Position numbers and translations under genes: made by a program. DNA of 64,000 bases from Eutreptiella sp. 'Long Island Sound 2002' (taxonomy: Eukaryota > Euglenozoa > Euglenophyceae > Eutreptiales > Eutreptiaceae): NCBI GenBank assembly GCA_964036045.1, contig OZ038388.1, forward strand, positions 37,806,947-37,870,946. The letters run 5' to 3'. Below the pieces are notes generated by a model. The model saw only the letters and a list, made by a program, of their open reading frames with translations. It was not told the origin of the DNA and ran no database searches. This document shows, one piece after another, positions 7,957 through 60,616 of the stretch; within the stretch, counting starts at the first letter, position 1, and each line of letters starts with the position of its first letter.

Positions 7957-7959
7957 TAG
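7957..7959 (+). promoter_or_regulatory. Element B gag/pol TAG, candidate readthrough stop
   Basis: Gag ends in TAG and the same frame stays open into pol with no frameshift. The following codons are gga agc caa, and element C has TAG then ggg agc cac. The downstream peptide begins Gly-Ser in both. This arrangement fits Gag-Pol made by stop-codon readthrough, as known for gammaretroviruses, rather than by the frameshift common in gypsy elements. The function is inferred. Confidence 0.6.
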
Positions 7960-10900
7960 GGAAGCCAACTGGATTCAATTCCCAACATTGGTGTTGAGTG
8001 GCAGGAGACAAAGCCCATCAGGGTAGTTGGGGCGGTGGATGGACGCTGCTGGGATCGGCTGGTGCGTTCCTCCGGCCTCCTCTACCCTGCCTGGGTCCTC
8101 AGCGCTGTCCGGCGGGGCAAGCAGCGCCAGTTTGTCTGCTGGATCCAGGTCAGGACGACAGATGGTAAGGTTAAACTTGCCAAATGTCTGATTGACAATG
8201 GTTCAGAGGTCAATCTGGTGAGGAGAGGCTTTCTGCAGGAGGACGAGGCGAGGATGTCCTCGACACCTGTCCAGCTGGAGGGAGTGAGCGGACATCGCCT
8301 TGAAGGTGGCGACAGAGAGGCAGAATTGGCGGTCAGATTGGTGAAACAATCTGTCTGGAGCGTGGAGGAGACGGTGACGGAGGAGTGGTTTTCTGGAAAA
8401 TTCTATGAAGCCACCATAAAGTATGATTTATTCTTGGGTCAACCATGGCTTCACGCTCACCGTGTGTCGCCCATGGGACACAGGACATGCTTCCTCCAGG
8501 ATCCGTCGACCAGCGACCCGTCCGACCTGTATTATCTGCACCCATACACCAAGAGTATACACCAATTCAAGGAGCGAAATAAGCTGCATATTCAGCGAGA
8601 TGGGCAGGAATGGACAGGGAATCAAGAAGAATTCGCCGAAGGAAAGGTGGAATCATTGAACTGCAAGAAGTGGAAGTCAGTCTGCTATCGTGTAGTCGAC
8701 AAATGGCGGGACATTCTGGTGGATTACTTCGAAAAGAACCACAATTTTCGTCCGCAAGTTGATGCCTTTGCAAACAACAGAAATAAAAGATTTCCAAAGT
8801 TCTACGACGATGCCCGGAGTGAGGACTGGTCTGAACCTTTATGGATCAATCCGCCCTTCGACGTTTTTCCTCGTGTGGTGCAGAAGCTGAAGCAATCCGG
8901 CGCAAAGGCGATTTTAATTGTCCCCAGCTGGCCAAAACAATCTTGGTTCAAGGACATTTTGGACATTTCAATCGACATTGTCGAGCTACGTCACAAGGGA
9001 GTGAAGCTGTATTGCGAAGACAATGGCAAGCCTTTGCCACAGCGTTCGTGGAGCACGTTGGCGTGCTTAGTTGACGGGAATCTGGGAGATTATTGGCGAG
9101 ATGACAGTGAAATGGGAACAAAAGAGGTAATTTCAAATTCCTCAGGAATCGACGAAATTGAGGTGGATCGAGACGATCGAGAGCGGAATCCCGACATATC
9201 GTCGCGGAAGGAGGGAAGGACAATCGACGTCCCTCAAGAGAACGCCTCCATCCATTCCAATTTGTCCCCATCAGATAAGAATCAAGCCAAAAATGTCAAG
9301 ATTTCAAGCAAGAATGACGACAAATTTCCAAGATTTTCACCTGAATTGACAGGAATGCAGCTGAATTCGTCGAACCATCCCTTCAAGACATTTATGGACG
9401 CCCTTAATTGGTGGGATCCCACGGAGGAGAGACCTCAGGTGAGCTTCCTCCGCCAACAATGCAACGAAGAAGTTTGGAATGAAGTGGCCAAGAATATGAG
9501 ACCACGACCAACAGTTCGCAAATTGGTGGACATAATGTCGGTGATTAAATGTGGGAATCAGGTCGACGGAGACAGGATAGCTGCAAGAAGGGATGCAGTG
9601 TTCGAAGACTATAAGGATGATGTGCTGAGTGGGAAGTTGTGGAAAAACCCCCCAATTTGATGTGAAAATCGGGAAGCCAAGATTGAGATAATCCAAGGCT
9701 CAAAGGTGCACAAACAACGTCCATTCTACCTCCACGGCACCAAAGCAGATGCCCTGCGAAAGATTATTGAGCGCAGTCTCTATGAGTTCGGTTGGTTGGA
9801 GGGCTGCATGAGTTCTGAGTGGTGTTCAGCACCATTTACTGTGCCAAAACCCCCACCTGCTGACCAATCCAGCATAGATGCTTGGCGCCTAGTGGTGGGT
9901 TACAGAGCTCTGAATGCCGCCACGGTACCTGACGCGCATCCCCTTCCTTTAATCGAGAAGGAGATCGCCGCAAGAGCCAAAGGTAAGCTCTTCACTGTGC
10001 TGGATTTGCGCCATGGCTTTCACCAAATGCCACTTCGAAAGGAGGATAGGCATTTAACGGCAATGTGCACGCCCTGTGGCACTGTCCAGTGGACTGTACT
10101 GCCGATGGGTCTGAAGAATGCGCCGTCGATGTTCCAGAAGATGATGGAGACTATTTCATTTCACAAGCACAAGTCTCTGGGATTACAAGAATTCTGCAGC
10201 ATCTACATTGACGACCTTCTGATTGCCACGCCATTGGGAAAAAACTTTGACGAGTGCCTGAAGTTGCACGAAGAACAAGTCCGCAAAGTTATCGAAGTCC
10301 TTCGACAAGAGAAGCTCGTGTGTGGACCCAAGAAGGGCAAAATGTTCCTCCAGAGCGTGGAATTTTGTGGCTCTGTCTTGGAAGCTGGGACAAGAAGACC
10401 GGCCCCAGGGAAAATGGCTGCCCTGCAGCTATGGGAAAGGCCTAAAACCATCACGCAGCTTCGTGCCCTTTTAGGTTGCTGCAATTATTACCAACAGTTC
10501 CTTCCCCTCTACGCCAAGTTCTCTGGTCCATTGACAGAATTACTCAAGGTTGGCAAAATAGAAGGAAAGAAGGGATCTCAAGTCAAGCTCAAGTGGACGC
10601 CAGAATGTGAAGAGGCCTTTACTGGTCTCAAGGAAGCACTGGTAAATGTGGTTACATTAAAGACTCCGTGGTTGGATGGAAGACCTTTTTGTATTCGTAC
10701 AGACGCCAGTCGTTACGCCATGGGTGCTACGATCAAACAAGTCGATGACGAAGGTCACCATCATCCTCTGGCTTTCTGGTCTCGCAAGCTTACAACAAGA
10801 CAGCGAAATTGGAGTCCCAGGAAACAAGAAGCCTACGCAATCCTTTGTGCCTTACGGCGTTATGAAGGTTTGATCTTGGGCCATCGCGTTGAGGTACTGA

Positions 10901-11155
10901 CTGACCCCAAGACACTGGAGAGCTCGAGGGCAGAACATGTGGACACCCCTGGTGGACCAGCTGGGAGGAGAGGCCGTTGGCATGAAACTCTCAGCAGATT
11001 TGACCTCCACGTGACTTACATTCCAGGGCGCTACAATACAGGGGCGGATGCCCTGAGTTGCTGGGCCTACCCAGCCTCAGAAGCTTACTCTGGAGTGATT
11101 TTTGATGGGACAGTGACGGATAAAGCCGAAGTGATCGAGTTTGATAAGAAGGAAC
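7960..11155 (+). pseudogene. pol: Element B pol, part 1: protease, MT-like domain, RT, RNase H
   Basis: The frame continues directly from gag. A retropepsin motif CLIDNGSEVNLV lies at about 8185-8220 with DNG in place of the usual DTG/DSG, and the flap-side LGQPWL follows. Next comes a methyltransferase-like domain (8695-9078) and a linker. Reverse transcriptase follows, with GWLEGCM, LDLRHGFHQMPL, MGLKNAPSMFQ and YIDD at 10204-10215. RNase H has TDASRYAMGA, EAYAI and a degenerate TDPKTLE where TDHxSLE is expected. A TGA at 9658-9660 interrupts the frame where element C has arginine. The frame is cut at 11155 by element D and resumes at 45518; joining across one TSD copy keeps it open. Confidence 0.9.
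8695..9078 (+). other. DIRS-type Dam-like methyltransferase domain in element B Pol
   Basis: About 128 residues lie between protease and reverse transcriptase. The order of motifs is VVDKWRD, VDAFANNRNKRF, LWINPPFDVFPRVVQKL (NPPF at 8848-8859), AILIVPSWPKQSWF and, at the end, PLPQRSWSTLACLVDG. The pattern D-[AL]-FA...R...F...W...NPPF...A-x-[IL]-[IL]-[VA]-P-x-W...W matches the domain that follows RNase H in DIRS retrotransposons, which is related to phage N6-adenine methyltransferases (DPPY/NPPF motif IV). Enzymatic activity is not shown. Elements C and D/E carry the same domain at the same place. Confidence 0.72.
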
Positions 11156-16143: not shown

Positions 16144-19100
16144 TCAGGCACCCTTAGCTGCAATCGCCCGGGTGAGTGCTGCCAAGTCCGAAACGTGGAT
16201 CTTGGTCTTGTGCTTGCGGATGTACTCCATGAAGGGAGTATTGACCCGCGGCACGAACGAGGAGACGGGTTCCCAGGTGTCGTGGGACGGCCCATAGCCT
16301 CGCCAACGAACCTTGAACTCCAGACCTCCGGGTGCCGAGGCCTTCGGACGCTGCGCCAGGATCTTCTCGACTGTATAGTCGTCCTGCTCCGCATAGTCGT
16401 CGTCCGAATCAGCCTCATGTGCGGCATAGCTCAGGGACACATGCTGGCCACGGAGGTCGGGTTCCCGCACACAGAGTTGACTCTCGTGGCGCTCCCGGAA
16501 CTGTCCGTGACCGACCTTGATGCGGTAGGTGTCCTCACCAATCCTGCGCACCACCTCGCCGGGTGTGAACCAGGTTTTGGTGCGGTGGGTGCCCATGGGG
16601 CGGGGTCTCATCACCCACACCGGGTCTCCCACCCTGAACTTCTGCGCTGTCGAGCTCGGGGCGGACTTCTGACGCTCAGCATGCTCCTTCTCGAGCTGCT
16701 GGCGGATGTCCCGCGCCGTTTGCTCTTGCCGCGCGAAGAATTCCTTGGCATCCATAGCCATGCCATCACCAGACAAGGGAAGTCCCCTACCCAGGGGGTC
16801 CCTGCCGAACAGAATCTGGTAAGGGGACAAACCACCCGGTGTGGGGGTGTCATGATGGGCCTTCAGAGCAGGCCACATCTCCTCAAACCAGTTCCGACGT
16901 GGATTGGTGATGTGGATCTTGCGCAGCTTCTCGAACAGCTGCCGTCCAGCAACTTCAGCACGGCCGTTAGACCGGCTGAGATAGGCGACGCTCTTGGCAT
17001 GACGTATTCCCATGTGGGAACACATAGCCTTGAACCAGCCACCAGTAAACTGGGGCCCTCGGTCACTGCAAATGGTGCGGGGGATGTCAAAGACGGTCAG
17101 CCAATGACGAATGATCGTGACTGCCACTTCCTTGGCAAGCAACCCCTTTTTGCGTGCCGGAACGGCTACAACGTAGCCGCTGTGGCGGTCCACACAGAGA
17201 ACCACACAGTCAAAGGTCTCCTTGCCAATGTGCACTTCGGGCATGGAGAAGACGTCCATGGCCACGCTCTCCATGGGCTGGTCAGGAACCGGGGTCCATT
17301 GGGGTTCCCCCTTAACGTTCCGGTTGTCGGGATTGCAGGCCTGACAGACCGAGCAACCCTTCCTGACCTTCTTGATGGCGGTGTAGAGAACGATATGGTC
17401 GATCTCGAACCGACGCTGCATGTCAAGAGCTTGCTTCTTGACCCCTGGGTGCAGCATGTGGTGGTGCCAAGCCTCACACAGCTCGAGCACCCGGGACTCT
17501 GGTACTAGCAGCTTACCATTCCGGTAGAGCTTGCCATCCTCCTCAGTCAGCCCCTTTGGCCACTTCTGCCCGTCGTCAGGGTCGGTCACAGCCCTATACT
17601 CGGCCGCAAAGGCCTCAGACTTGGCGTAATCGTCGGTCCAGTCGTCCTGGAGGCAAGACTCCGGGAAGAGGGGCTTGTCGGACTCAGCTCCCTCAGGGGC
17701 GAGTACACTGACCGCTCTGCTCACCCTCGACGCGAAGGGGGGCATCCGCAGCCATGACGACGAAGCATTTTGCACCCTCCTCCTCCATCAGGCGCTCCAT
17801 TTCAATGATCCTCTTGGCTTCAGCGGTCTCAGCCTCATCGCCATGGGCAGAGATATCCTGCATGCCCTTGCTGGCGGGATAGGCCCACCTACTGAGACAG
17901 TCCGCCACGGTGTTATCCTTTCCAGGAATATAAACAACCGTAAGGTCGAACTTGGCCAAGGTCTCATGCCATCTTGCCCGTCGGGAGGCGGGACCTGAGG
18001 GAGTGTCCACGTGCTCCTTGTGCCACGACTGCAGACTCTGATGGTCGGTGCAGACGGTGACGGGATGGAGGGGTATGTACCCAGCCCATTTCCTGAGAGC
18101 CATGACGATGGCATACGCCTCCTTTTCACGGGGCGTCCACGTCCGTCTCTGGCCTTCCGCCAGGACTCGGCTCCAGAAGGCCACGGGCACGTGCCTCCCG
18201 TCGTCAAGCACTTGCTCCAACACAGCGCCAATGGCGTAGTCGGAAGCGTCGGTGCGCAGGACGAACCCTCGGTCGGGATCCACGAGGTGCAGACCCACTG
18301 CGGATAGCAGCGCCTGCTTCATCCCCTCAAAGGCACGGTCGGACTCAGGTGTCCAGACCAGAGCCTTCTTGGACCCCTTCTTGGTCTCCTCTCGGTTGCC
18401 CTTGAGCATGGCCGTCATGGGGGCTGCATACTCGGCATACATTTTGATATACCCCGAGTAGTAATTGCAGAACCCCAGATACGCCCGTAGCTCAGAGACC
18501 GTTTTGGGCTTTTCCCAGTGCTCAATCGCAGCCACCTTGCCAGGTATGGGCTATCGCTGCCCGTTCCCGACTACGTGGCCAGCGAAGACCACCTCGCTTA
18601 CCGCAATGGTGGCCTTGTCACTGCTGCCCGTGAGTTTGTGCCGAACCAGAAGGTCCAGCACTCGAGTGACGTCCCTCTCATGTGCCTCCAGGAGCTCCTC
18701 GTAGCTCATACTGGGGTCCCCGGACGCGATGATCACGTCGTCCACGAAGGGGTCCGCACAGTCACGCACCAGCTCAAGCAGGTTCTCCAGCATCCGCTGA
18801 AAAGCCGCATTGCCGTTGGTAACGCCCATGGGCATCACCTTCCACTGGAGAGGTCCAAGTGGGGTGCTCATGGCTGTGCAGGCACGGGACTCCTCGGCGA
18901 GAGGCATCTGATGATAACCATGTTTCAGGTCAATCACCGTGAAGATCCTCCGCCGGTGTTGCTTTTGCAGCATGTCCTGAATGAGGGGCAGCGTATAGCT
19001 GTCGTGCTGCGTTTGGGTGTTCAGGCCGCGGTAGTCGACCACGAGCCGCCACGCACCGGCAACCTTCTTGGGGACGACGAAGCACGGAGAGGCCCATTCG

Positions 19101-21127
19101 GAGTGGCACGGCTCAAGCCAGCCTCTCTGCATGAAGTCACGGAGGATCTTCTCCATGGCCTCCTTCCTCTCGCCCCTCAGGGCAAACTCCCGGTGCCGAT
19201 ACACACGGGGGTCCTGCTTGAGTCGTATCTTGGCCTCGCCATACGGTCCACGCACCAGTGGGGGAAACACAGGCTTACCGCTGAAGAAGGTATCACCATA
19301 TTTCTGCTTCAGCCTGGCCCTCAATGCCTGAATCTTGGGGCAATCATCGGACTCCGCCTTGGCTTTTCCAGGCACTTGGACCACGGAGCTTACTTGAGGG
19401 GTAGCGACCCCGCTCGCCTTCGGCTCAGGTGGTCTTCCCAGGTGGCCCAAAGGGCCATCTCTGGTCTTGCCTCGGAATAGATCGCCGTAGGTGGGTGGGT
19501 TACCCCCGATTGGCTCGTCCTGGCTGGATAGGTGGTCCAGCACCCTCTGCACGAAGGTGTTCCCGTCATAGGAACCAGAGACGATCGAGTCCACTTCCCA
19601 CCAGGCTCTGTCCTGGCCCTTGCCCTCACGCTGGTTTCCCCAGTCTTGAAAGGGCTGATCCATATACCCCTGAACCAGATCCCACTCCTCTTCAGTGAGG
19701 GGGTCTTCCGATTCGGATTCTTCGATGTCAACAGGGGGAACCGCAAAGCATTGCCTCCAAGGCTCCGCTACGATGCGGTTGACACACACGAAGTCCGTGG
19801 TGTCGGCCTGATCAAGGCCCCCATCCACATAGTGGAATTCCGTTGGCCATCTCTGGGGTGGCATGGGCTGTCCCTTAGCGTCCTGATAGACACTCTCGCC
19901 AGCCGGTAGGACGACCTTGTTTAAGGTCATGTTGGTCAATGAGGCTACCCAATGTCGGGTACTCTCCTCCTCGGTGCATCCCATAGGAACAACCAGCACT
20001 GCCTTGGAGCGGTCCTTGCGAATCTTCGCTGTCGCTCTTGGAATGTCCCAACGGGGGCAATGGATCCACATCAATCCCTGATGCGGACCCCAGTGCTTCT
20101 TCCACGCGGAGTCCTGTGCGCTCCAGTACTTCTCACACACCCGAAGATGGGCGGAGGTTCCTGAAGAGAACGCATCCAGGGCCAGATCCGAAGCTCCCAA
20201 GTGCGCGACAACTCGGCTCGCCACTTCCGGCCTTACGCCGTACTCCTGGTTTGCAGGACCAGTCGGCTCAGTGTCCAGCGCGGCCACTTCGAGCTGATTG
20301 CGTTCGGGGTGGATCCATTGGCATTCCACATGGTGCTCAGGTGACGAAAGCCACGAGAGCTGGTCGTCCTGGTACAGGGTCATGGAGGCCTGGGCTGGGA
20401 GGACACCAGAGTCCGTCTCCATCATGAAGTCGTACCCAACGATCATGTCCCAGTCCATCTCGGCCTCGTAGAAGCGACCGTGCAGGAGGATTTCCTTGCC
20501 GAGGTCCGGGCGACTCAGCTCACGATGGTTCACGAACTGCAGCCCGATGGCCGCTTCCTTCGTGCCTCCCACCATGTACTGGCCGTTCGCCACCTTCAGC
20601 CTGACAGGTTTCCGACTGTCGGTCAGACACTCTGGTGGAAGTAGGCCAGCCTTGACCAAGCTGACTTGAGCTCCCGTGTCGACCAACACGTCGAAAACCT
20701 TTTCCACTTCCCCGCATAAGGCACGGACCTTAAGATGCAACTGCCGCTCGCGACCGACACGGCGCACGGCGTGCAAACTCAGGATCTCCGGCCTTTCCAG
20801 AAGCTCAACAAGCGACTGGTGCAGGTCGTGGACAATGGGCTCAGGCTGCCCATCTGCAGCATCCAGCTGCGGTCCGGGTGATCCTCCGATACTCTCGGAT
20901 AGATCCTGTAGTACATCAAACACGTTCTTGGTCGCGAAGGACGGACGGGTGCAAGGGTTTGTGCCTTTACTTGCCCTCACCCCGCCTCCGCGACTGGGCG
21001 CCGGACCGGGCCTTCCGCCCGCGGTAGTCCCCTTGTGCTTATCGACTCCCGACTGGGATGGTTCGGCGCTTCCCACGTCACCATCCTGCGACCGCCCTAG
21101 CTGGGGCCCTTGGCTGCAGGGGCTCCG
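16144..21127 (-). pseudogene. pol: Element E pol (broken by one stop and one frameshift)
   Basis: The frame continues from gag after its TAG. In order: a linker, the retropepsin LVDTGAQVSLV (about 20654-20686), a degenerate methyltransferase-like domain (19829-20236), an acidic linker, and reverse transcriptase with LDLKHGYHQMPL-type motif and FVDD at 18737-18748 instead of YxDD. RNase H has RTDASDYAIGAV and TDHQSL. Integrase has an HHCC finger and a D, D-35-E triad (residues 174, 238 and 274 of the 3' reading frame). A chromodomain with YTVEKIL, FKVRWRGYG and DTWEPVSSF ends the protein. Lesions relative to element D are a TAG at 18551-18553 in place of lysine and one extra base near 17735 that shifts the frame between RNase H and integrase. 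Confidence 0.93.
19829..20236 (-). other. Degenerate methyltransferase-like domain in element E Pol
   Basis: This is the same position and motif order as in elements B and C: LALDAFSSG, a tryptophan-rich middle, GLMWIHCPRWDIPRATAKI, KAVLVVPMG and MPPQRWPTEFHYVDGG. The NPPF tetrad is replaced by HCPR, so the expected catalytic motif is gone while the fold-forming hydrophobic blocks remain. Element D has the same HCPR. A structural or binding role instead of catalysis is an inference. Confidence 0.6.
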
Positions 21128-21130
21128 CTA
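21128..21130 (-). promoter_or_regulatory. Element E gag/pol TAG, candidate readthrough stop
   Basis: TAG ends gag, and the same frame is open from the next codon (cgg agc ccc) into pol. Element D has the identical TAG at 37832-37834. TAG followed by CGG resembles a known class of readthrough context in which the stop is followed by CGG. Function is inferred from the arrangement. Confidence 0.6.
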
Positions 21131-32848: not shown

Positions 32849-35800
32849 TCAGGCACCCCTGGCTGCAATCGCCCGGGTGAGTGCTGCCAAGTCTGAAACG
32901 TGGATCTTGGTCTTGTGCTTGCGGATGTACTCCATGAAGGGAGTATTGACCCGCGGCACGAACGAGGAGACGGGTTCCCAGGTATCGTGGGACGGCCCAT
33001 AGCCTCGCCAACGAACCTTGAACTCCAGACCTCCGGGTGCCGAGGCCTTCGGACGCTGAGCCAGGATCTTCTCGACAGTATAGTCGTCCTGCTCAGCATA
33101 GTCATCATCCGAATCAGCCTCATGCGCGGCATAGCTCAGGGACACATGTTGGCCACGGAGGTCGGGTTCCCGCACACGGAGTTGACTCTCGTGGCGCTCC
33201 CGGAACTGTCCGTGACCCACCTTGATGCGGTATGTGGCCTCACCAATCCTGCGGACCACCTCTCCGGGTGTGAACCAGGTTTTGGTGCGGTGGGTGCCCA
33301 TGGGGCGGGGTCTGATCACCCACACCGGGTCTCCCACCCTGAACTTCTGCGCTGTCGAGCTCGGGGCGGACTTCTGACGCTCAGCATGCTCCTTCTCGAG
33401 CTGCTGGCGGATGTCCCGCGCCGTTTGCTCTTGCCGCGCAAAGAATTCCTTGGCATCCATGGCCATGCCATCACCAGACAAGGGAAGTCCCCTACCCAGG
33501 GGGTCCCTGCCGAGCAGAATCTGGTGAGGGGACAAACCGCCCGGAGTGGGGGTGTCATGATGGGCCTTCAGAGCAGGCCACATCTCCTCAAACCAGTTCC
33601 GACGTGGATTGGTGATGTGGATCTTGCGCAGCTTCTCGAACAGCTGCTGTCCAGCCACTTCAGCACGGCCGTTAGACCGGCTGAGATAGGCGACGCTCTT
33701 GGCATGACGTATCCCCATCAGGGAACACATAGCCTTGAACCAGCCACCAGTAAACTGGGGCCCTCGGTCACTGCAAATGGTGCGGGGGATGTCAAAGACG
33801 GTCAGCCAATGACGAATCATCATGACTGCCACTTCCTTGGCAACCAACCCCTTTTTGCGTGCCGGAACGGCTACAACGTAGCCGCTGTGGCGGTCCACAC
33901 AGAGAACCACACAGTCAAAGGTCTCCTTGCCAATGTGCACTTCGGGCATGGAGAAGACGTCCATGGCCACGCTCTCCATGGGCTGGTCAGGAACCGGGGT
34001 CCATTGGGGTTCCCCCTTGACGTTCCGGTTATCGGGATTGCAGGCCTGACAGACCGAGCAACCCTTCCTGACCTTCTTGATGGCGGTGTAGAGAACGATA
34101 TGGTCGATCTCGAACCGACGCTGCATGTCAAGAGCTTGCTTCTTGACCCCTGGGTGCAGCATGTGGTGGTGCCAAGCTTCACACAGCTCGAGCACCCGGG
34201 ACTCTGGTACTAGCAGCTTACCATTCCGGTAGAGCTTGCCATCTTCCTCAGTCAGCCCCTTTGGCCACTTCTGCCCGTCGTCAGGGTCGGTCACAGCCCT
34301 ATAATCGGCCGCAAAGGCCTCAGACTGGGCGTAATCGTCGGTCCAGTCGTCCTGGAGGCAAGACTCCGGGAAGAGGTGCTTGTCGGACTCAGCCCCCTCA
34401 GGGGCGAGTACTCTGACCGCTCTGCTCACCCTCGTTGCGAGGGGGGCATCCGCAGCCATGACGACGAAGCATTTTGCACCCTCCTCCTCCATCAGGCGCT
34501 CCATCTCAATGATCCTCTTGGCTTCAGCGGTCTCAGCCTCATCGCCATGGGCAGAGATATCCTGCATGCCCTTGCTGGCGGGATAGGCCCACCTACTGAG
34601 ACAGTCCGCCACGGTGTTACCCTTTCCAGGAATATACACAACCGTGAGGTCGAACTTGGCCAAGGTCTCATGCCATCTTGCCCGTCGGGAGGCGGGACCT
34701 GAGGGGGTGTCCACGTGCTCCTTGTGCCACGACTGCAGACTCTGATGGTCGGTGCAGACGGTGATGGGATGGAGGGCTATGTACCCAGCCCATTTCCTGA
34801 GAGCCATGACGATGGCATACGCCTCCTTTATACGGGGCGTCCACGTCCGTCTCTGGCCTTCCGCCAGGACTCGGCTCCAGAAGGCCACGGGCACGTGCCT
34901 CCCGTCGTCAAGCACTTGCTCCGACACAGCGCCAATGGCGTAGTCGGAAGCGTCGGTGCGCAGGACGAACCCTCGGTCGGGATCCACGAGGTGCAGACCC
35001 ACTGCGGATAGCAGCGCCTGCTTCATCCCCTCAAAGGCACGGTCGGACTCAGCTGTCCAGACCAGAGCCTTCTTGGACCCCTTCTTGGTCTCCTCTCGGT
35101 TGCCCTTGAGCATGGTCGTCATGGGGGCTGCATACTCGGCATACATCTTGATATACCCCGAGTAGTAGTTGCAGAACCCCAGATACGCCCGTAGCTCAGA
35201 GACCGTTTTGGGCTTTTCCCAGTGCTCAATCGCAGCCACCTTGCCAGGTATGGGCTTTCGCTGCCCGTTCCCGACCACGTGGCCAGCGAAGACCACCTCG
35301 CTTACCGCAATGGTGGCCTTGTCACTGCTGCCCGTGAGTTTGTGCCGAACCAGAAGGTCCAGCACTCGAGTGACGTCCCTCTCGTGTGCCTCCAGCAGCT
35401 CCTCGTAGCTCATACTGGGGTCCCCGGACGCGATGATCACGTCGTCCACGAAGGGGTCCGCACAGTCACGCACCGGCTCAAGCAGGTTCTCCAGCATCCG
35501 CTGAAAGGCTGCATTGCCGTTGGTAACGCCCATGGGCATCACCTTCCACTGGAGAGGTCCAAGTGGAGTGCTCATGGCTGTGCAGGCACGGGACTCCTCG
35601 GCGAGAGGCATCTGATGATAACCATGTTTCAGGTCAATCACCGTGAAGATCCTCCGCCGGTGTTGTTTTTGCAGCATGTCCTCAATGAGGGGCAGCGTAT
35701 AGCTGTCGTGCTGCGTTTGGGCGTTCAGGCCGCGGTAGTCAACCACGAGCCGCCACTCACCGGCAACCTTCTTGGGGACGACGAAGCAGGGAGAGGCCCA

Positions 35801-37831
35801 CTCGGAGTGGCACGGCTCAAGCCAGCCTCTCTGGATGAAGTCACGGAGGATCTTCTCCATGGCCTCTTTCCTCTCGCCCCTCAGGGCAAACTCCCGGTGC
35901 CGATACACACGGGGGTCCTGCTTCAGTCGTATCTTGGCCTCGCCATACGGTCCACGCAACGGTGGGGGAAACACAGGCTTACCGCTGAAGAAGGTGTCAC
36001 CATACTTCTGCTTCAGCCTGGCCCTCAATGCCTGGATCTTGGGGCAGTCATCGGACTCCGCCTTGGCTTTTCCGGGCACTTGAACCACGGAGCTTACTTG
36101 AGGGGTAGCTACTCCGCTCGCTTTCGGCTCAGGTGGTCTTCCCAGGTGGCCCAAAGGGCCATCTCTGGTCTTGCCTCGGAATAGATCGCCGTAGGTGGGT
36201 GGGTTACCCCCGATTGGCTCGTCCTGGCTGGACAGGTGGTCCAGTACCCTCCTTACGAAGGTATCTCCATCATAGGAACCAGAGACGATCGAGTCCACTT
36301 CCCACCAGGCTTTGTCCTGGCCCTTGCCCTCACGCTGGTTTCCCCAGTCGTGAAAGGGCTGATCCATATACCCCTGAACCAGATCCCACTCCTCTTCAGT
36401 GAGGGGGTCTTCCGATTCCGATTCTTCGATGTCAACAGGGGGAACCGCAAAGCATTGCCTCCAAGGCTCCGCTATGATGCGGTTGACACACACGAAGTCC
36501 GTGGTGTCGGCCTGATCAAGGCCCCCATCCACATAGTGGAATTCCGTTGGCCATCTCTGGGGTGGCATGGGCTGTCCCTTAGCGTCCTGATAGACACTCT
36601 CTCCAGCCGGTAGGACGACCTTGTTCAAGGTCATGTTGGTCAATCAGGCTACCCAATGTCGGGTACTTTCCTCCTCGGTGCATCCCATAGGAACAACCAG
36701 CACTGCCTTGGAGCGGTCCTTGCGAATCTTCGCTATCGCTCTTGGAATGTCCCAACGGGGGCAATGGATCCACATCAATCCCTGATGCGGACCCCAGTGC
36801 TTCTTCCACGCGGAGTCCTGTGCGCTCCAGTACTTCTCACACACCCGAAGATGGGCGGAGGTTCCTGAAGAGAACGCATCCAGGGCCAGATCCGAAGCTC
36901 CCAAGTCCGCGACAACTCGGCTCGCCACTTCCGGCCTTACGCCGTACTCCTGGTTTGCAGGACCAGTTGGCTCAGTGTCCAGCGCGGCCACTTTGAGCTG
37001 ATTGCGTTCGGGGTGGATCCATTGGCATTCCACATGGTGCTCAGGTGACGAAAGCCACGAGAGCTGGTCGTCCTGGTACAGGGTCATGGAGGCCTGGGCC
37101 GGGAGAACGCCGGAGTCCGTCTCCATCATGAAGTTGTACCCAACGATCATGTCCCAGTCCATCTCGGCCTCGTAGAAGCGACCGTGCAGGAGGATTTCCT
37201 TGCCGAGGTCTGGGCGTCTCAGCTCACGATGGTTCACGAACTGCAGCCCGATGGCCGCTTCCTTCGTGCCTCCCACCATGTACTGGCCGTTCGCCACCTT
37301 CAGCCTGACAGGCTTCCGACTGTCGGTCAGACACTCTGGTGGAAGTAGGCCAGCCTTGACCAAGCTGACTTGAGCTCCCGTGTCGACCAACACGTCGAAA
37401 ACCTTTTCCACTCCCCCGCATAGGGCACAGACCTTAAGATGCAACTGCCGCTCGCGGCCGACACGGCGCACGGCGTGCAAACTCAGGATCTCTGGCCGTT
37501 CCAGAAGCTCCACAAGCGACTGGTGCAGGTCGTGGACAATCAGCTCAGGCTGCCCATCTGCAGCATCCAGCTGCGGTCCGGGTGATCCTCCGATACTCTC
37601 GGATAGATCCTGTAGTACATCAAACACATTCTTGGTCGCGAAGGACGGACGGGTGCAAGGGTTCGTGCCTTCACTTGCCCTCACCCCGCCTCCGCGACTG
37701 GGCGCCGGACCGGGCCTTCCGCCCGCGGCAGTCCCCTTGTGCTTATCGACTCCCGACTGGGATGGTTCGGTGCTTCCCACGTCACCATCCTGCGACCGCC
37801 CTAGCTGGGGCCCTTGGCTGCAGGGGCTCCG
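32849..37831 (-). pseudogene. pol: Element D pol (one nonsense codon)
   Basis: It shares the domain order of E pol: retropepsin with VDTGAQVSLV, methyltransferase-like domain with HCPR, reverse transcriptase with FVDD, RNase H, D,D35E integrase and C-terminal chromodomain. The only break in the frame is a TGA at 36644-36646 inside the methyltransferase-like domain, where E has serine. The frame then runs unbroken for 1264 codons to 32849. The frame is intact at both sites where E pol is broken. The frame joins gag through the TAG at 37832-37834. Confidence 0.93.
36524..36940 (-). other. Degenerate methyltransferase-like domain in element D Pol
   Basis: It is almost identical to the E domain, with WIHCPRWDIPRA in place of the NPPF region and the C-terminal RWPTEFHYVDGG block. 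It is interrupted by the TGA at 36644-36646. The loss of NPPF is shared with E and so predates both insertions. Confidence 0.58.
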
Positions 37832-45513: not shown

Positions 45514-45517
45514 GAAC

Positions 45518-47111
45518 AAGCACTGATCAAGAAACATTGTCTCCAATGTTCGATTAAGAATCGTATGAAGGTTGAATTGGTTAGATGCAAGGAGATTACC
45601 AAGGCAGATAAGATTGGAGGAGTTAACACTGACTCTGAGTCTTCGCTGCCACTCCTGAATGTGTTTCCAGTGACAAGATCCAAGGCGAAATCCACGCTCC
45701 CTCCACAACAAAAGGACAAGGAAGCTTCCTCCCTCTATGTGGATTGGACAAAGATGTACAAGGAGGACAGGTTCTTTGGGTCTGTATACCGCAAGTTGAA
45801 AGGGGACAAGCCTTACGACTCTGAAGAGAAATCTGATTTCAAGATCCAAGGCGACAAGTTATTTTGGCAAGGACGGATTTGTGTTCCTGATTGTCTAATT
45901 GACCAATATGTCAAACATTGGCATTGGAATGAGACATCCCACGGACAGTCCCGTGTTCTGGAGCAGGAGCTACGACACAGAGTGTACACACGGGACCTCA
46001 AGGGTGCCTGTGAGCGAGTTGCCAAAGGATGCAAGCAATGTCAGACGAACATCCCCAAGAATCAAAAGGCAGAAGGATTATTGAAGGGACTGCCAATTCC
46101 TGAGAGGTTGTTCGACAAGGTGACGGCAGATGTCTTCGAATTGGGACAAATCCAAGAGGAATGTCTCTACACGAGGTTTTGTTAATTCAAAACCGCCACA
46201 GTGGCTACATCCAGGTCCTCCCTTGCAACACGAAGCATCTCACCGCTGAAATGGCTGCCAAGTGGACTGCAAGTCAGTGGATGAGTAACTGGGATGTTCC
46301 CAGTGAAATTCTGACGGTCAGTGGGAAGGAGTTCATTGAGACTTGGTGGGAGAACATGTGTGGTCTATTGGGGGTTCATCATCTTCGTGCCCGAGTCTAC
46401 GACCATCGAGCCCTCCCTGCTGAACCCGCTGGAAGAATTCTTATCAACATTCTGAGAAAATTCCTGGCGACTGAAGAAGACTACAATTGGTTGGAGACAA
46501 TTTACTGTGTCTTGAGGAGATACCATCGGACCAAGAACTACACTGGAGTAAGTCCGCATGAGCTGGTTTTTGGTCGTGAGAAGATGGGTCCAGGACCAGT
46601 GATGTATCATCCAAGGCAGTGCTACGACGCCTCACAATGGTTTGAGAGGATCAAGGATTTAGAGTCCAAGCGGATTCAAGCCAAAGTGAAGAGTCAAGCA
46701 GATTGGTTGAAATTCAAAAATCAGTCGAGAACACAAGGAAAATCCTTCGAGAAAGGCCAGCAAGTTTGGCTTCGTAAGTCAGACGGGACCCTGAAGGATG
46801 ACAACAAGTTGTTACCTTTGTGGGAAGGCCCATTCCAAGTCACCAGCAGTTTCGAGTTGGAGAAGATCCTTGATTACAAGAAAAATGCTCGAAACAAGTG
46901 GTACTTTCTGTGCAGATGGAAAGGATTCGGTCCAGAAGAAGACAAATGGGAGCCAGCTTCAAGCTTTATCCATGGGTATACGGACACTTTCATCAAGTTC
47001 CTGAAGAAGCACCCTGAGATTGACCGTGAGCTCTCGCTGATCAAGGATTGTGTCACCAAGGAAGACTTACAAGCACAAGAAGAAGCTCCAATCGTGGCAG
47101 ATTCCATTTGA
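45518..47111 (+). pseudogene. pol: Element B pol, part 2: integrase and chromodomain
   Basis: It resumes the frame cut at 11155. It begins in the linker after RNase H (ALIKKHCLQCS) and contains the integrase zinc-binding region (HWHWNETSHG ... CKQCQ), the first catalytic Asp in VTADVFELG, and TVSGKEF where element C has TDSGKEY. The second catalytic Asp is therefore mutated to Val. The Glu is in AEPAGR. A small deletion and frame change near 46165-46185 splits the integrase. The chromodomain (ILDYK...WYFLCRWKGFG...DKWEPASSFIHGY) is at about 46865-47000, followed by a short acidic tail. Confidence 0.9.
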
Positions 47112-48203
47112 GACAAGATCTGATCAGAATTTAAATCGCCGAAACTTTCCAAAGGGTTTACGGTCTACATATACCCTTGGCATTGAGACGAAACAGTCCT
47201 GGCACATCGTCTATGTGGTTCGATGAACAGATGATGGGACATTCTGGGATCATCCTGGTCGTTCTGTCCATCATTCTCATCATGGTCATCATGTGAATCA
47301 TGTACTTCATTGTAGATGATTCCCATTGGAAGCTCCGAAAGGCCTTTATCGTCAACCACGACGACACTCTCGTGTTTTGTTATCGACTGTGCCCCTCTAC
47401 TCGCCTTGGGAAGGACTCGTTCGAGTTCGTGCTCATTTCAGAGATTCTGGCACATGACTAAGTCTGATGCAGTTCATGTGTTTGACGGATCTGCTGAGAA
47501 TGTTATTTCAATCAGCTCTTACATTGAGACTGTTGGTTTTTTTTCCAATCGACCGCTGTCAAAGGGCTTATAATCACCAAGTGAAGACGATGGTGTTCTT
47601 ACTTGTGTCGACTCGCTGCTTATCTGTCTGTGGATTGTGTTGGAATCCCCTCAGAATCAGCTCACATTTGGCAAATTCCTGGTACCGAGCATTGGATGCT
47701 TATACATTCTGGGACTACAATGAGTCAGTTACCCCTGGTGACTCGTACTGGATTCAACATGAAGCCCTGCAGACGATACTGACAGTGTGGGGTACACTCA
47801 CTGGGTTTTCTTGGCTATCATTACTTTTACATGATTGCATTTCCATCATGGGAATCATCATCATCATGAGGATTTGACCTGGATTGGTTATGAATGAGAA
47901 CTGGATTTCCGTTCAGCACCACACACAGTATCTATCGACAATGAATTGGACCTATATTGGCTTGCTGCAGACTTCGCCGTCTTCAATCCGTGTGCGATTC
48001 ACTGATTTTGGTCTCAATTCAGTCACATTCTGTCCCATAATCTGGCATCTGGTCTCATGACTGCAAATGACACCGACCAGTTTCATATATCTTGGACTCC
48101 ATGAAGGGATACCCTATTTTTTGGACGCTCGACGACATGGCGACACTCGTTTTCTGTTTTCTGGCAGTGGGATGTCAGATCCTGATTTCATCATGGATCA
48201 TGG
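47112..48203 (+). other. Element B 3' untranslated region, part 1
   Basis: This is about 1.1 kb between the pol stop and DNA transposon F. There is a 136-codon open frame at 47467-47877 with hydrophobic stretches, but no homologue at the matching place in element C and no recognisable domain, so I do not call it. Repeated atcat/catcat motifs are present. The 3' remainder is at 59877-60138. Confidence 0.6.
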
Positions 48204-50398: not shown

Positions 50399-53300
50399 TT
50401 AATTCGGCCAAGCTCGAATGCATGTGACCACCAACCTGTCTGGCCTGGCCCTCGTACGGCTTGGGCGCTGCAGATCAGCTGCCGAACTTGAAGCTTGGTC
50501 CTCATTTGGTTCCTGGGCTGGCCTGACCGCAGGAGGGGGGATCGACGGATCAGCCCTGGAATGTGGCTGCTGAGGGCCGTAAAAGGCTGGATCTCGATTC
50601 ACCACAGGTCGTTTTCCGTCGCTCTCCACTTGTCTGTCTGGTTTCGACAAACAATCTGTCAGGAGTACACCAATTTCGGGGTGCTTCTTCAAGAAGTCAA
50701 TGAACCCCTTGGTGTATCCATGGACAAAAGATTGGGCTGGTTCCCAGTTGTTGTGACTGGAATCAAAGCCCCTCCACTCACACAGAAATTCCCATTCGCC
50801 CTTGGCGTCACGTCTTGCTTCAACAATCCTCTTGAGTTCGTACTTTCCCCCTTCGATGACCCGATCGGACAAGTGTTTTGCAGTCCAAAAAAGGGGTTTA
50901 ACTCGATCCTTGGGGGAGGGGATCTCTCTCTTAAGGCGATCGCCCGAAACGTCAATTTCCCTGCTGACATCCACACGAATCCTCCACCTGTTCTCACCAA
51001 GACGTGCTGTAACAGCAAATGGCCCCTCCCACAAGGGAAGAAGCTCGTCATCTCCGTCCAGGGTGGTTTCGGATTTTCGAAGCCAAACTCGATCATCGAC
51101 TTCAAAATTGTGGGGGTTCTTTCGACCTTGATTTTGAACCCAAAGCCAGTCAGCTTGATGCTTCTCGATTAATTTCGACACAGATTTATCTGCTCGTTGG
51201 ACTTCGTCCAAAAACAGCGAAGCATCCTTACAGGGGCGAGGATTATTCAACGGCATGTTCCACCAACACTTCTTTCGTCCAAAGACAATTTCATTTGGAG
51301 AAAGGCCATGATACAAAGGTGTGTTGTGGTAACGGCGAAGCAATGCGAAGAGAACTTCCATCCAATGGAAATCCTTTTCACTCGCGAGCTCCTTACGAAG
51401 CATATTAATTATTGAGCGGCCGGCTCTTTCGCCAGGCAGCGCTCGATGCGAGTGGATTTCACACCTGAGGTGGTGGATTCCAAGGCGAGCACATAATTCT
51501 CTCCACCATTCGGAGGTGTACTCTTTGCCTGAGTCCGTAACCACCTCGGATGGGACGTCCCAACCTCCCATCCAGGTCTGCGCGCACCATTTGGCGGCAG
51601 CCTTGCCAGTCATCGACTCGATGTTGCAAGGCAACACCTGCATGTAGCCGGAATGACGGCACTGAATAAGGAGCACACCATTGACCTTTTTATTAGTCCA
51701 ATGGCACTCTTCGTCATCGAGTTCACCGAGATAGAAAAAATCACTGGTGACTCTGTTAAAGAGACGCTCCGGAATAGGATGAGGCCTCAGATGGCCGTGC
51801 TTCTTCGCGCTGGGGGGCGCCGAGACAGCACATTGGGCACATCCGGCTGCTACTTTCATGCAATGAGTGTAGAGCCTCGATCCAAACAACCTATGCTTAA
51901 TCATCGACCACAGTCGACGGCCATGTGCGTGGGGGGACTCCCATTTGTGCCACCAGTTTAACACTCGGGGGGCTAGGGCGTCTGGCACACACAATTTACC
52001 CTCCATCCACAGCTTCCCCCCATCCAACGAGTACTCAGCAAAAATCCCATCCCTGTGAGCATCTTTGGATTTGAGATTTCCAAAGACCTCTTTAAACATG
52101 GGATCCTGCAGGTAATCGGACGTCCAGTCACGGATGATCAGGGAATCCTTAGGCAGGGGTGGAGTTTTGGCCGGATCTCGACGCTTAATGCCCTCGATCA
52201 ACCGAAATCGACTTACTTGTCGGGTATAGTCAAACCGTTTCACACTCCCTGAGGAGGGATCGGTGACTTTTTCCACGACTTTCAGCGTTTTGGTGCAGAT
52301 CTCGTGAGCATGCGCCGGATCTGTGATGGCCGTGATGTCGTGACACGGCAATGCGTGCTGTTTAACAGCGCACTGCATGCATGCACGTCGAATGAGTTTC
52401 TTTTCTTCCTGATCCCATTCGATGATTACATGGCGGTCCTGCTCCGTACCATGGATGTTGGTACTTTGCAGCCCCTCTGAGGCGGGGTAAGCCCATCGGC
52501 TCAGAGCATCCGCTACCGTGTTATGTTTTCCAGGCAAATACGACACATGGAGGTCAAACAGAGAGAGAAATTCGTGCCATCTGGCCCGTCGACCAGCTGG
52601 GCTCGCGACAGTATCAATGTGTTCGGTGGCCCAATACTCCAGAGATCGATGATCCGTCAGGACCTCGACTCGATTGGTGCCAACCCACGATTGGTACTTT
52701 TTTAAAGCACAGATGATGGCATACGTTTCTTGCTCACGCGGCGACCATTGCATTTGGCGTGGAGCTAGCTTCCGAGACCAAAATGCAAGAGGGTAGTGAT
52801 CGCCGGTGGCTTCATCAACCTGTTCAAGGACAGCTCCGATCGCGTACCTAGATGCGTCGGTTCTAATGTAGAAGGGTCGGTCAAATTGGGGCACATGCAA
52901 CGTGGCGACTTCGCAGAGGGCTGCCTTCAAGTGATGGAAGGCCTCCTCGCACTCGTCAGTCCACTTGACACGAACCTTTGAACCTGCCTTGCCCGCATCT
53001 CTCCCTACCTTCAATAATTCAGTGAGGGGGGCAGCAAATTTGGCATAATTCGGCACAAAAGTGTGGTAAAAATTGCAACAACCCAGGAATCCTCTCAACT
53101 CCGTGATCGTCTCAGGGCGCTTCCACTTCTGAATAGCGACGAGCTTCCCTGGACTGGGTCGTCGAGTGCCATTCTCTAGGAGAGAACCACAAAATTCGAC
53201 TGATTTTAAAAAAAATTTTCCCTTCTTTGGCCCACAAATCAGCTATCAAGAATATCCAAAACTTGGTTCAGCTGCTTCTCATGTAGGGCCACCAGCTCGG

Positions 53301-55575
53301 CTTCGGTCAGTCCCTCCCCCTCCGTCGCGATGATTATGTCATCTATGTACACACTCACGAAGGCACGAAGCTCAGGATGGGTTGTGAACAGCACATCCTC
53401 CATCATTCTTTGAAAAAATGAGGGGGCGTTCTTCAATCCCATGGGCATGACGGTCCACTGGACTGGGCCACATGGCGTGCACATACAGGTAAGAGGTCTG
53501 CTGTCCTTCCTCAACGGCATTTGGTGAAAGCCGTGACGGAGATCCAGCACAGAGAACAAACGACCTCTTGCCCTCTTGGCGATTTCCTCCTCAATGAGGG
53601 GCAGGGGGTGTGAATCCGCCTTTGTTTCGGCGTTGAGATTGCGAAAATCAACCACCATTCGCCAACCATCAATGGTGTTCTGGTCTGCAGGCGGTGGCTT
53701 CGGGACTGTGAAGGGTGAACAGCACCATTCGCTGGTCATACAACCCTCAAGCCAACCAAATTCCCTGAGATTTCTCTCGATGATTTTTCTGAGAATCTCA
53801 TGTTTGTGTCCATGATTTTCATAAGGGCGCTGTTTTTTTGCCTTGTACCCTTCACGAAGCTCGATGAAGGCTTCACCGAACTGTCCACGGACAGGGGGGT
53901 CTTTGATCAACTTTCCTGAAAGGGTTGTATCCTTCCGTTCCTCAAAAATCTTTTCTCTTGACTTGGAACACAATTCAGTGTCCACCTGATCGCCAGGGAT
54001 TACTGTCGAAAAAACTTTGGCGACTTCTTCGGCTTTGGCAGGAAGGATCTTCTTACGGATGTCCCTAAACAGGTCCGTATCCACTGCCTCTTGAAGATAG
54101 GTGGGTCTTGTGTCGAAATCCCAGAGATTTTCTTCGTGATCCAGCTCCTCGAAAGGATCCATGAAAGCTTCCACAGGGGGTTTTTCTTAAAAAACTCTGA
54201 ATTTGCGGCGCGATTGGAGATTTTTCCTCGCCCGTGCACTGAAGATTCTTTTCGATGTCGCCCGTATTGGGGAAGAGGGAGACGAGGCGGATCCATTGGT
54301 CGTTGAATCACCTTGGGTATCTGACGAACAAAAATCAGAAAAAATAGATTCATCATCAGTACCACGCTCAACCTCAGATTCTGACCCAACACAAGAATCA
54401 GTACCAGAATCAGCAGAATTAGAGTCAGAAAGCTTTCCATCCACCAGGAATGCAAGCGAACTCCAGGACCGCTGTGGCAGGGGACCTGTGTCGTCCCTGG
54501 CATACAGCTTAATCTTCCTGGGAAGTTCGATGTAATCTACACAAATGTCCTGTAATTCCTGAAACCAAGGCTTGTCGTCCCACAAGGGCACAACTAAAAT
54601 TGCCTGGGTTTTATCTTGCTTGATTTTGTGGATGACCTGCTGGATTAAGTGAAACGGAGGATTAATCCACAACTTCTTGTCCCATTTGTGGGTCCAAGCG
54701 TCGCTGAAGTGCTTGTCAAAGCGCTTGTTCATACGGTTAGCAAAGGCATCATACTGGGGCCAAAAGGAATGATGTTCATGAAAGTATTCACAAATTGTAT
54801 CACGCCATTTGTCGACAACTCTGTAGGATGAAGAGTGCCAGCGCGAAGGGCGTCGTGGCTGGGAGTCCCTACGAAGACATTCTAACTCTTGGGAGTAATC
54901 GGCACTCCCATTCACCTCTGCAATGGTGACATCTTCACCAAATTTTGGTGTCACTTTTTGCTTCAAAAATTCTTCTGCACTTTTAAACCCTGCGTGCAAA
55001 AAACGAAATTCAGGACGCTCCAAGGGACCTGACTCCAGCAAAAAACAACGACGATGACCTACGGGCGCTACCCTGTTCTTGCGAAGCCAAGGATGCCCCA
55101 AATAAAGGTCATACTTTATGTCAGCACGATAGAAGTAGTCATCCTTAAGGACAACTTCTTCCACATTTTGCTCTTCCCAAAGGTCTTGAGCGACCAAATG
55201 GGTTGATATATAACAACCGCGTTGCCCACCTGCGAGAGAATGTCCAGAAACTCCCTCGAGGATAACAGGATGAGGCGACTCGAACACGCAGTCGTCGGGT
55301 AAGAATGCATTGGATTGGAGATTTACCTCTGATCCATTATCACACAAACAAGTGGCGAGGTGGAAATTTCCCTTGCAATCAGAGACCCACAGCTTTGTGA
55401 CAAACTGACGAGCCCTGTGCTTGGACTGTACACCAACCTCGTCCACTACAACAGAAGGATCCGCTGCCGGATCCAGGGGAGAGGAGACAAGCGACCCTAC
55501 ATCAAGTAATGGTCGATCAGGAATTTGGGGATCATGCCTGAAATCGCCTGGGGAGGGGCGATTTTCGTGGCTCCC
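50399..55575 (-). pseudogene. pol: Element C pol (one nonsense codon, one frameshift)
   Basis: It continues in frame from gag after the TAG. In order: retropepsin CLCDNGSEVNLQ (DNG variant, as in element B) with LGHPWL, the methyltransferase-like domain (54433-54816), a Ser/Asp/Glu-rich linker, and reverse transcriptase with LDLRHGFHQMPL and YIDD at 53338-53349. RNase H has RTDASRYAIGAV, TDHRSLEYW and NTVADALSRW. Integrase has a zinc finger ending CAQC, Asp in VTSDFFYLG, Asp in TDSGKEY and Glu in PGERAG, about 34 residues apart. The chromodomain WEFLCEWRGF...NNWEPAQSFVHGY and a proline-rich tail follow. TAA at 54187-54189 and a one-base frame loss near 53245 (between reverse transcriptase palm and thumb) disable it. 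Confidence 0.92.
54433..54816 (-). other. DIRS-type Dam-like methyltransferase domain in element C Pol
   Basis: It is collinear with the domain in element B: SSSYRVVDKWRD, YDAFANRMNKRFDKHF, LWINPPFHLIQQVIHKI (NPPF at 54652-54663), AILVVPLWDDKPWF, LPQRSWSSLAFLVDG. The motif set and spacing are conserved between B and C although surrounding sequence has diverged, which argues that the domain was under selection while these lineages were active. Activity is not shown. Confidence 0.72.
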
Positions 55576-55578
55576 CTA
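55576..55578 (-). promoter_or_regulatory. Element C gag/pol TAG, candidate readthrough stop
   Basis: Gag ends in TAG followed by ggg agc cac. The frame stays open for about 460 codons into protease and the MT-like domain. The same frame relation and similar downstream codons occur in element B (TAG gga agc caa). Confidence 0.6.
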
Positions 55579-60613: not shown

Positions 60614-60616
60614 ACA

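What the first reader, a model, noticed from the sequence alone, without database searches (positions are those of the whole stretch)
7960..11155. Methyltransferase-like domain of DIRS type between protease and reverse transcriptase in Ty3/gypsy chromoviruses
Elements B (8695-9078), C (54433-54816) and D/E (36524-36940, 19829-20236) all carry an extra ~130-residue domain between retropepsin and reverse transcriptase. In B and C it shows VDAFAN-x-NKRF / DAFAN-x-MNKRF, WINPPF, AIL-[IV]-VP-x-W and a C-terminal LPQRSWS block. From established knowledge, this motif order belongs to the Dam-like methyltransferase domain that follows RNase H in DIRS retrotransposons, which use a tyrosine recombinase. 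Here it sits in integrase-bearing LTR elements and at a different position in Pol. To my knowledge this architecture is not standard for gypsy elements. Presence in three diverged lineages means it was kept over long element evolution.
Basis: partly seen in the sequence, partly recalled or inferred. Interest (0 to 1): 0.88.

Follow-up and report, generated by a model that had tools for sequence, protein, structure and literature searches.

The report
Dam-like methyltransferase domain in gypsy retrotransposons
Abundant jumping genes of the gypsy type in this large eukaryotic genome carry, between their protease and reverse transcriptase, a protein domain related to phage DNA-adenine methylases; it is kept by selection in the family tested best, so these elements may tag their own DNA copies.

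Summary
Four elements in the window (B, C, D, E) carry a ~135-145-residue domain between retropepsin-like and reverse-transcriptase regions. It belongs to the phage/DIRS Dam family: the B domain, scanned alone, passes the Pfam PF05869 cut-off. An HMM of 7 phage Dam proteins, run against 1,516 six-frame segments of the window, hit only segments of these four elements. A third gypsy-like lineage elsewhere in the genome passes the cut-off clearly. D and B have chromodomains. In 30 RT-selected B copies the domain is present in 30 and constrained (dN/dS 0.17, against 0.52 for the adjacent linker). B and C keep the catalytic NPPF motif; the third lineage has NAPF; D/E has HCPR, near-fixed in its family, so it is probably catalytically dead yet retained. 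'DIRS type' is not shown: no DIRS sequence could be compared, and the cited motifs align with phage Dam. Function (adenine methylation of element cDNA) is inferred. Ten searches of an open-licence library found no report of a Dam domain in a gypsy element, apart from one unspecific sentence. Verdict: real; a new variant of a known kind.

The parts
8104..8526 (+). element B retropepsin-like region (active site reads D-N-G)
   Evidence: motif reading only (family name recalled); no Pfam match; N in 30 of 30 copies's alignment
8662..9084 (+). element B Dam-like methyltransferase domain (D-A-F-A, N-P-P-F)
   Evidence: PF05869 E=1.2e-6, 28.7 bits, cut-off 28.1, when scanned alone; phrog_111 3.2e-7; TIGR01712 6.7e-5, below cut-off; phage-Dam HMM 4.2e-8
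9844..10371 (+). element B reverse transcriptase
   Evidence: PF00078 1.2e-26
10594..11001 (+). element B RNase H
   Evidence: PF17919 8.5e-26, PF17917 1.3e-24
45514..47342 (+). continuation of element B after the nested insertion: integrase H2C2 region (weak) and chromodomain (46851-46964)
   Evidence: 93.8-94.2% identical to a continuous B copy, L050; Chromo 7.8e-8 above cut-off, H2C2 0.0079 below cut-off
54427..54843 (-). element C Dam-like methyltransferase domain (N-P-P-F)
   Evidence: PF05869 1.7e-4, 21.7 bits, below cut-off; phrog_111 5.3e-4; no TIGR01712 match; phage-Dam HMM 1.1e-5
53239..54174 (-). element C reverse transcriptase reading frame
   Evidence: 65% identical to the B RT over 208 residues; not scanned with Pfam
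19814..20251 (-). element E Dam-like domain, catalytic motif replaced (H-C-P-R)
   Evidence: TIGR01712 8.7e-4, below cut-off; PF05869 0.066 with the whole ORF; phage-Dam HMM 0.0038
18572..19075 (-). element E reverse transcriptase
   Evidence: PF00078 7.8e-23
36518..36955 (-). element D Dam-like domain (H-C-P-R), one in-frame stop at 36644-36646
   Evidence: PF05869 0.016 with the whole ORF, below cut-off; phage-Dam HMM 3.9e-4
37250..37399 (-). element D retropepsin (D-T-G)
   Evidence: PF13975 0.0049 and RVP 0.017, both below cut-off
35276..35779 (-). element D reverse transcriptase
   Evidence: PF00078 2.8e-23
33701..34210 (-). element D integrase (H2C2 and rve core)
   Evidence: PF17921 9.6e-4, PF00665 7.4e-7, both below cut-off
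32972..33082 (-). element D chromodomain
   Evidence: PF00385 5.5e-9, 36.3 bits, above cut-off

Best explanation
The segment is a domain of the phage/DIRS Dam (DNA N6-adenine methyltransferase, PF05869) family, fused into Pol between protease and reverse transcriptase of Ty3/gypsy elements, chromodomain-bearing in B and D. Shown: homology, position, presence in at least three diverged lineages, purifying selection in B. Inferred: in B and C, which keep D-A-F-A and N-P-P-F, it is a working methyltransferase that travels in the particle with RT and methylates adenines in the element's newly made double-stranded cDNA, marking it for protection, nuclear handling or chromatin choice at the insertion site. 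In D/E (H-C-P-R), and perhaps in the N-A-P-F lineage, catalysis is lost or altered and the domain is kept for nucleic-acid binding or for folding and processing of Pol.
For: Pfam Dam over its cut-off for the B domain and in 93 of 93 reported genome matches, of which the 8 best, fetched as L001-L008, are the third lineage (the other 85 were not read except L055). phrog_111 and TIGR01712 matches. hhalign of B+C against 7 phage Dam proteins over 128 columns, P=96.5%, E=8.8e-10; L003+P0053 against phage Dam E=4.4e-9; E linked to L003 and to B/C. RT-selected B copies: domain present in 30 of 30; dN/dS 0.17 (bootstrap 0.12-0.23, 25 usable) against linker 0.52 (0.35-0.83, 23 usable) and RT 0.086 (30 usable, ascertained on RT). 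Of 150 scored B matches, 12 lie in open frames of 1,657-1,658 aa with no stop in the match, and a 13th has one. All 150 scored matches to the E domain are 99-100% identical to it, many in frames of 1,660-1,673 aa, so elements with the degenerate motif amplified successfully.
Against: The whole B ORF gives no Pfam match up to E=1, and neither the long B frame (L050) nor the long D-family frame (L052) gives a Dam match up to E=0.01; C, D and E are below Pfam's cut-off, and all TIGR01712 matches are far below that model's cut-off. E against phage Dam alone is weak (P=62%, E=7.6e-5). P0053 gives no Pfam match. No target sequence, methylation data or expression data. D-family selection rests on few changes: for the window pair, 3 silent and 2 replacement in the domain.
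Confidence: 0.6

Rival explanations
1. Throughout these lineages the domain is a pseudo-enzyme: a methyltransferase fold kept for binding nucleic acid or for scaffolding RT, with catalysis incidental or lost.
For: H-C-P-R is near-fixed in the D family (H 57, C 59, P 61 of 62 members aligned there and R 59 of 61, of 68 hits), and copies of this domain are abundant. In the third lineage N-A-P-F is kept: A in 7 of 8 copies, N, P and F in 8 of 8, and in a relative from a JGI source 49% identical. D-family domain dN/dS is 0.047 in 5 copies, 3 of them similarity-selected, and 0.19 in the window pair.
Against: B and C keep N-P-P-F; in RT-selected B copies N 28, P 29, P 26 and F 28 of 30. Loss of catalysis from the motif is inferred, not measured; one annotated phage Dam (X14) reads N-C-P-Y.
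Confidence: 0.3
2. The domain modifies RNA (genomic RNA or tRNA primer) rather than cDNA.
For: It lies next to RT; RNA targets were suggested for other retrotransposon methyltransferases (PMC5890265, passages); gypsy elements with an m6A RNA demethylase domain exist (PMC9289625, search listing and passages).
Against: Its relatives are phage DNA methyltransferases by annotation.
Confidence: 0.12
3. A plain linker or an unrelated domain with chance motif resemblance.
For: Whole-ORF Pfam scans of B show no Dam match; D/E scores are weak alone.
Against: Several independent profiles agree; the linker next to it has about three times the dN/dS in B.
Confidence: 0.03

Closest known systems
MT domain of DIRS1-like retrotransposons (PMC3266345 and PMC3783388, passages read)
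   Same: methyltransferase domain in a retrotransposon Pol; in PMC3783388 detected with PF05869
   Different: there it follows RNase H, with a tyrosine recombinase and no protease or DDE integrase; here it precedes RT in integrase-bearing elements, with chromodomains in B and D
Phage N-6-adenine methyltransferases (PF05869, TIGR01712, phrog_111)
   Same: colinear over ~128 columns including Dx[AF]A...NPP[YF] and the C-terminal block
   Different: 24-28% identity between B and the two phage proteins; stand-alone phage proteins; extra N-terminal parts in some
KnitGypsy-Dnmt3 of Klebsormidium nitens (PMC5890265, passages read)
   Same: gypsy element with a DNA methyltransferase in Pol under purifying selection
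   Different: cytosine Dnmt3; that paper calls adenine and cytosine enzymes structurally unrelated
Orchid Ty3/gypsy elements with an m6A RNA demethylase domain (PMC9289625, search listing and passages read)
   Same: acquired accessory domain touching adenine methylation
   Different: demethylase, not methyltransferase
Sola1 DNA transposon of Ectocarpus with a ParB-methyltransferase accessory protein (PMC12477816, passage read)
   Same: mobile element with a predicted N4-cytosine or N6-adenine methyltransferase
   Different: DNA transposon, separate gene

Membership tests
Dam / phage N6A methyltransferase (PF05869) | profile match above curated cut-off | tested here: met
   B domain scanned alone 28.7 vs 28.1 bits; third lineage L054 42.2 and L055 34.1 bits. 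C, D and E fall below, and long B and D frames show no Dam match
Dam / phage N6A methyltransferase (PF05869) | motif IV [DN]PP[YFW] and motif I acidic/aromatic block (motif names recalled) | tested here: met
   met in B and C (N-P-P-F, D-A-F-A); third lineage N-A-P-F departs at one residue
Dam / phage N6A methyltransferase (PF05869), element D/E | motif IV [DN]PP[YFW] | tested here: not met
   H-C-P-R in the D family: related by descent, not to be filed as an active enzyme
Dam / phage N6A methyltransferase (PF05869) | class I methyltransferase fold | not tested
   structure prediction busy, then switched off
Dam / phage N6A methyltransferase (PF05869) | adenine N6 methylation activity | not testable with these tools
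   needs protein or long-read methylation data
DIRS retrotransposons | MT after RNase H; tyrosine recombinase; no protease or DDE integrase | tested here: not met
   MT before RT; integrase and chromodomain matches present; no separate search for a tyrosine recombinase was made
DIRS retrotransposons | MT domain closer to DIRS MT than to phage Dam | not tested
   no DIRS sequence could be obtained
Ty3/gypsy chromovirus | RT-RNase H-integrase order with chromodomain | tested here: met
   D, a D-family copy L052 and B copy L050, B in the window; chromodomains above cut-off, integrase matches below cut-off; protease weak by Pfam in D/E and by motif only in B; no RT tree was made
Ty3/gypsy chromovirus, element C | integrase and chromodomain | not tested
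   C frame is broken after RT; only RT similarity to B was measured

The most novel reading that the evidence does not exclude
A Dam-type adenine methyltransferase was captured once by a gypsy ancestor, became a fixed part of Pol next to RT, and was then turned in at least one very successful lineage (H-C-P-R) and perhaps a second (N-A-P-F) into a non-catalytic module that RT or Pol needs, the enzymatic state surviving in B/C: a graded series from enzyme to pseudo-enzyme inside recently active retrotransposon families.
Probability: 0.35. Interest if true: 0.75.

Novelty: new variant of a known kind. Interest (0 to 1): 0.62.

Why it matters
The function of the DIRS methyltransferase domain was stated to be unknown in 2011 (PMC3266345, passage). 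Having the same kind of domain in LTR elements that integrate by a different enzyme separates the domain from the tyrosine-recombinase life cycle, and points to reverse transcription or cDNA handling, which the two kinds of element share. One genome holds versions with intact and with degenerate catalytic motif in abundant families, so the role of catalysis can be tested by comparing families.

Tried and rejected
Rejected: linker or chance. Not decided: single against multiple acquisition. The small tree groups the phage proteins (100) but leaves D/E against phage unresolved (53), so it neither shows nor excludes one origin; the ranking of lineages is only broadly alike for RT and domain: B-C is closest in both, but D is nearer to B/C in RT and the third lineage is nearer in the domain. 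PDB sequence search: one hit, cystalysin at E=0.15, irrelevant. Protein-level conservation in the D family (16 of 26 proteins of 700 aa or more covered the regions from protease-domain link to RT; 15 of them the protease) was domain 0.92, protease 0.89, linker 0.88, RT 0.87 identity to E; it is biased by selection on the domain, and frame-broken proteins lower the RT value, so I did not use it. Fifth gypsy fragment at 60503-62275: no methyltransferase domain found in the window or in L086 beyond it, but the element is broken, so this says little. Host: not identified. I suspected a dinoflagellate from the look of the RT (recall); the test, a spliced-leader pattern, did not complete. Copy numbers of family C in this assembly: search did not complete.

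Full report
What is there. The window lies in an unnamed 2.28-Gb assembly in 2,205 contigs. It holds nested LTR retrotransposons. Element B lies on the + strand; the part from 8140 to 11155 matches a continuous copy elsewhere (L050), then B is interrupted and resumes at 45514-47342, all at 94-96% identity. The ~34-kb interruption holds E (15048-20805 aligned) and D (31754-37509 aligned), both on the - strand and about 96% identical to a copy elsewhere (L052). Direct repeats spaced 14.2 kb around each fit their LTRs (inference). Element C lies on the - strand, with an identical 300-nt repeat at 48223 and 58448 that fits its LTRs (inference).

The domain. In each element a segment of ~135-145 residues lies after the retropepsin-like region and before RT. 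Scanned alone, the B segment matches Pfam Dam PF05869 at 1.2e-6 (28.7 bits, cut-off 28.1) and the C segment at 1.7e-4 (below cut-off). The D and E ORFs match at 0.016 and 0.066 (below cut-off). The whole B ORF gives no match, and the long B and D-family frames L050 and L052 give no Dam match up to E=0.01. PHROGs phrog_111 (DNA methyltransferase): B 3.2e-7, C 5.3e-4, third-lineage protein P0049 8.3e-11, none for E or P0053. NCBIfam TIGR01712 (phage N-6-adenine methyltransferase): B 6.7e-5, E 8.7e-4, P0049 2.4e-7, all far below that model's cut-off; no such match for C or P0053. tblastn of the B segment against phage records found 620 records up to E=10, 222 of them with one place covering at least 80% of the query; the best E-value among the 20 listed was 6e-4, and all 20 are annotated as methyltransferases or methylases. 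The same with a third-lineage segment found 1,065 records, 6 with such coverage; of 20 listed at even steps, 14 are annotated as methyltransferase or methylase, 3 as hypothetical and 3 have no annotation; best E 5e-5.

Independent checks. I fetched seven phage Dam genes and aligned them. hhalign against that profile: B+C 128 columns, P=96.5%, E=8.8e-10; third lineage plus P0053, E=4.4e-9 over 77 columns; E alone P=62%, E=7.6e-5, but E against the third lineage P=95.9% and against B+C P=96.5%. An HMM of the seven phage proteins against the window's 1,516 six-frame segments (25 residues or more) returned four segments up to E=100, one for each of B, C, D and E.

Host elements. The window's D shows RT, RNase H, integrase H2C2 and core (both below cut-off) and a chromodomain above cut-off; a D-family copy (L052) shows the same in one open stretch. 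E was not scanned beyond RT but aligns with that copy at 96%. B copy L050 has RT, RNase H, weak H2C2, weak integrase core, weak p58_C and a chromodomain above cut-off, and the window's 46161-47111 ORF has the chromodomain. A third lineage (L001-L008, L054, L055) has Dam over the cut-off with RT in one ORF (L054, L055), also RNase H in L055, and an H2C2 integrase zinc-binding match in the next ORF; no chromodomain was seen in what I scanned. For C only RT similarity was measured. B-C identities are RT 65%, domain 55%; B-D are 43% and 29%; B-third lineage 39% and 35%.

Abundance. Genome searches score only the best candidates: 150 of 150 scored matches for the B domain (20,169 first-look candidates), 150 of 150 for the E domain (31,028), 93 matches for PF05869 among 150 scored. 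Counts are lower bounds and first-look numbers are not copy numbers. In a 90%-clustered protein collection, D-family clusters hold up to 2,069 members; a cluster of 218 members (P0042) has a domain that differs from that of C at one residue. From their identities I infer that most hits are copies from this species or a close one; their organisms are not named. One, P0053, comes from a JGI source on a 2.7-kb contig, is 49% identical to the third-lineage domain and also reads N-A-P-F.

Selection. Copies chosen by the domain itself are biased, so I repeated the test on 30 copies chosen by RT (the 30 best of 150 scored, the window copy among them). The domain is present in 30 of 30, with 26 distinct protein forms. 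dN/dS: domain 0.17 (bootstrap 0.12-0.23; 25 of 30 usable, 5 dropped for stops or partial gaps), linker 0.52 (0.35-0.83; 23 of 30), RT 0.086 (0.06-0.13; 30 of 30, favoured by the selection). The domain-selected set, also 30 with the window copy, gave 0.24 (28 usable), linker 0.51 (25), PR 0.35 (20), RT 0.24 (12). Third lineage, 8 copies chosen by Dam score: domain 0.22, linker 0.61, RT 0.49, upstream 0.69. D family, the window pair and 3 copies chosen by similarity: domain 0.047, linker 0.097, RT 0.20; window pair alone: domain 0.19 on five changes, RT 0.18, linker 0.10. For D the whole protease-RT stretch is constrained and the domain does not stand out.

Catalytic motif. B and C read N-P-P-F; in the RT-selected B copies N 28, P 29, P 26, F 28 of 30. 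The third lineage reads N-A-P-F (A in 7 of 8). The D family reads H-C-P-R: among 68 hits, 62 align there, with H 57, C 59, P 61, and R 59 of 61. From general knowledge of amino-methyltransferases, replacing the acidic/amide residue and the aromatic residue should abolish catalysis; this is inference. One annotated phage Dam (X14) reads N-C-P-Y, so the second position may tolerate change.

How it most likely works. As part of Pol the domain would be packaged with RT. In B/C I think it most likely methylates adenines of the double-stranded cDNA before integration. What the mark does (protection, recognition, chromatin) is unknown; similar ideas were offered for cytosine enzymes in retrotransposons (PMC5890265, passages). 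In D/E the same fold is probably kept for binding or scaffolding. Shown: homology, position, constraint in B. Inferred: activity, substrate, benefit.

Literature. Ten searches of an open-licence library, and passages of nine papers, gave: Dam or MT domains reported in DIRS elements (PMC3783388, PMC3266345), cytosine Dnmt3 in a gypsy element (PMC5890265), an m6A demethylase in orchid gypsy elements (PMC9289625) and a ParB-methyltransferase protein in an Ectocarpus DNA transposon (PMC12477816). PMC12440569 had no mention of a methyltransferase. [quoted passage not shown] PMC11673190 lists MT in the legend of its architecture figure, without naming the element in that passage. I found no report of this architecture; most subscription papers, preprints and Repbase entries were not searched, so it may be catalogued elsewhere.

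Verdict. A real, conserved Dam-family domain in a place not described in what I could search; DIRS affinity untested; activity unproven; probably lost in the D/E family. New variant of a known kind.

Noticed in passing
window 7957-7959 (+), 55576-55578 (-), 21128-21130 (-): gag and pol of B, C and E share one frame and are separated by a single TAG (followed by GG in B and C); TAG in 29 of 30 B copies. This suggests Pol is made by stop-codon readthrough.
   Followed up: partly
window 8104-8526 (+) and the C protease region, about 54997-55389 (-): The retropepsin active site reads D-N-G in B and C (in 30 B copies: D 28, N 30, G 30) but D-T-G in D/E; retropepsins usually have DTG or DSG (recalled).
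   Followed up: partly
window 11156-45513: A ~34-kb nested insertion holding D and E interrupts element B; B resumes at 45514.
   Followed up: yes
window 60503-62275 (-): A fifth, broken gypsy element with RT end, RNase H and integrase core matches; no methyltransferase domain found.
   Followed up: partly
window 21110-25492 and 37814-42387: Long open frames on both strands of the GC-rich gag regions of E and D, + strand ORFs up to 380 aa opposite gag.
   Followed up: no
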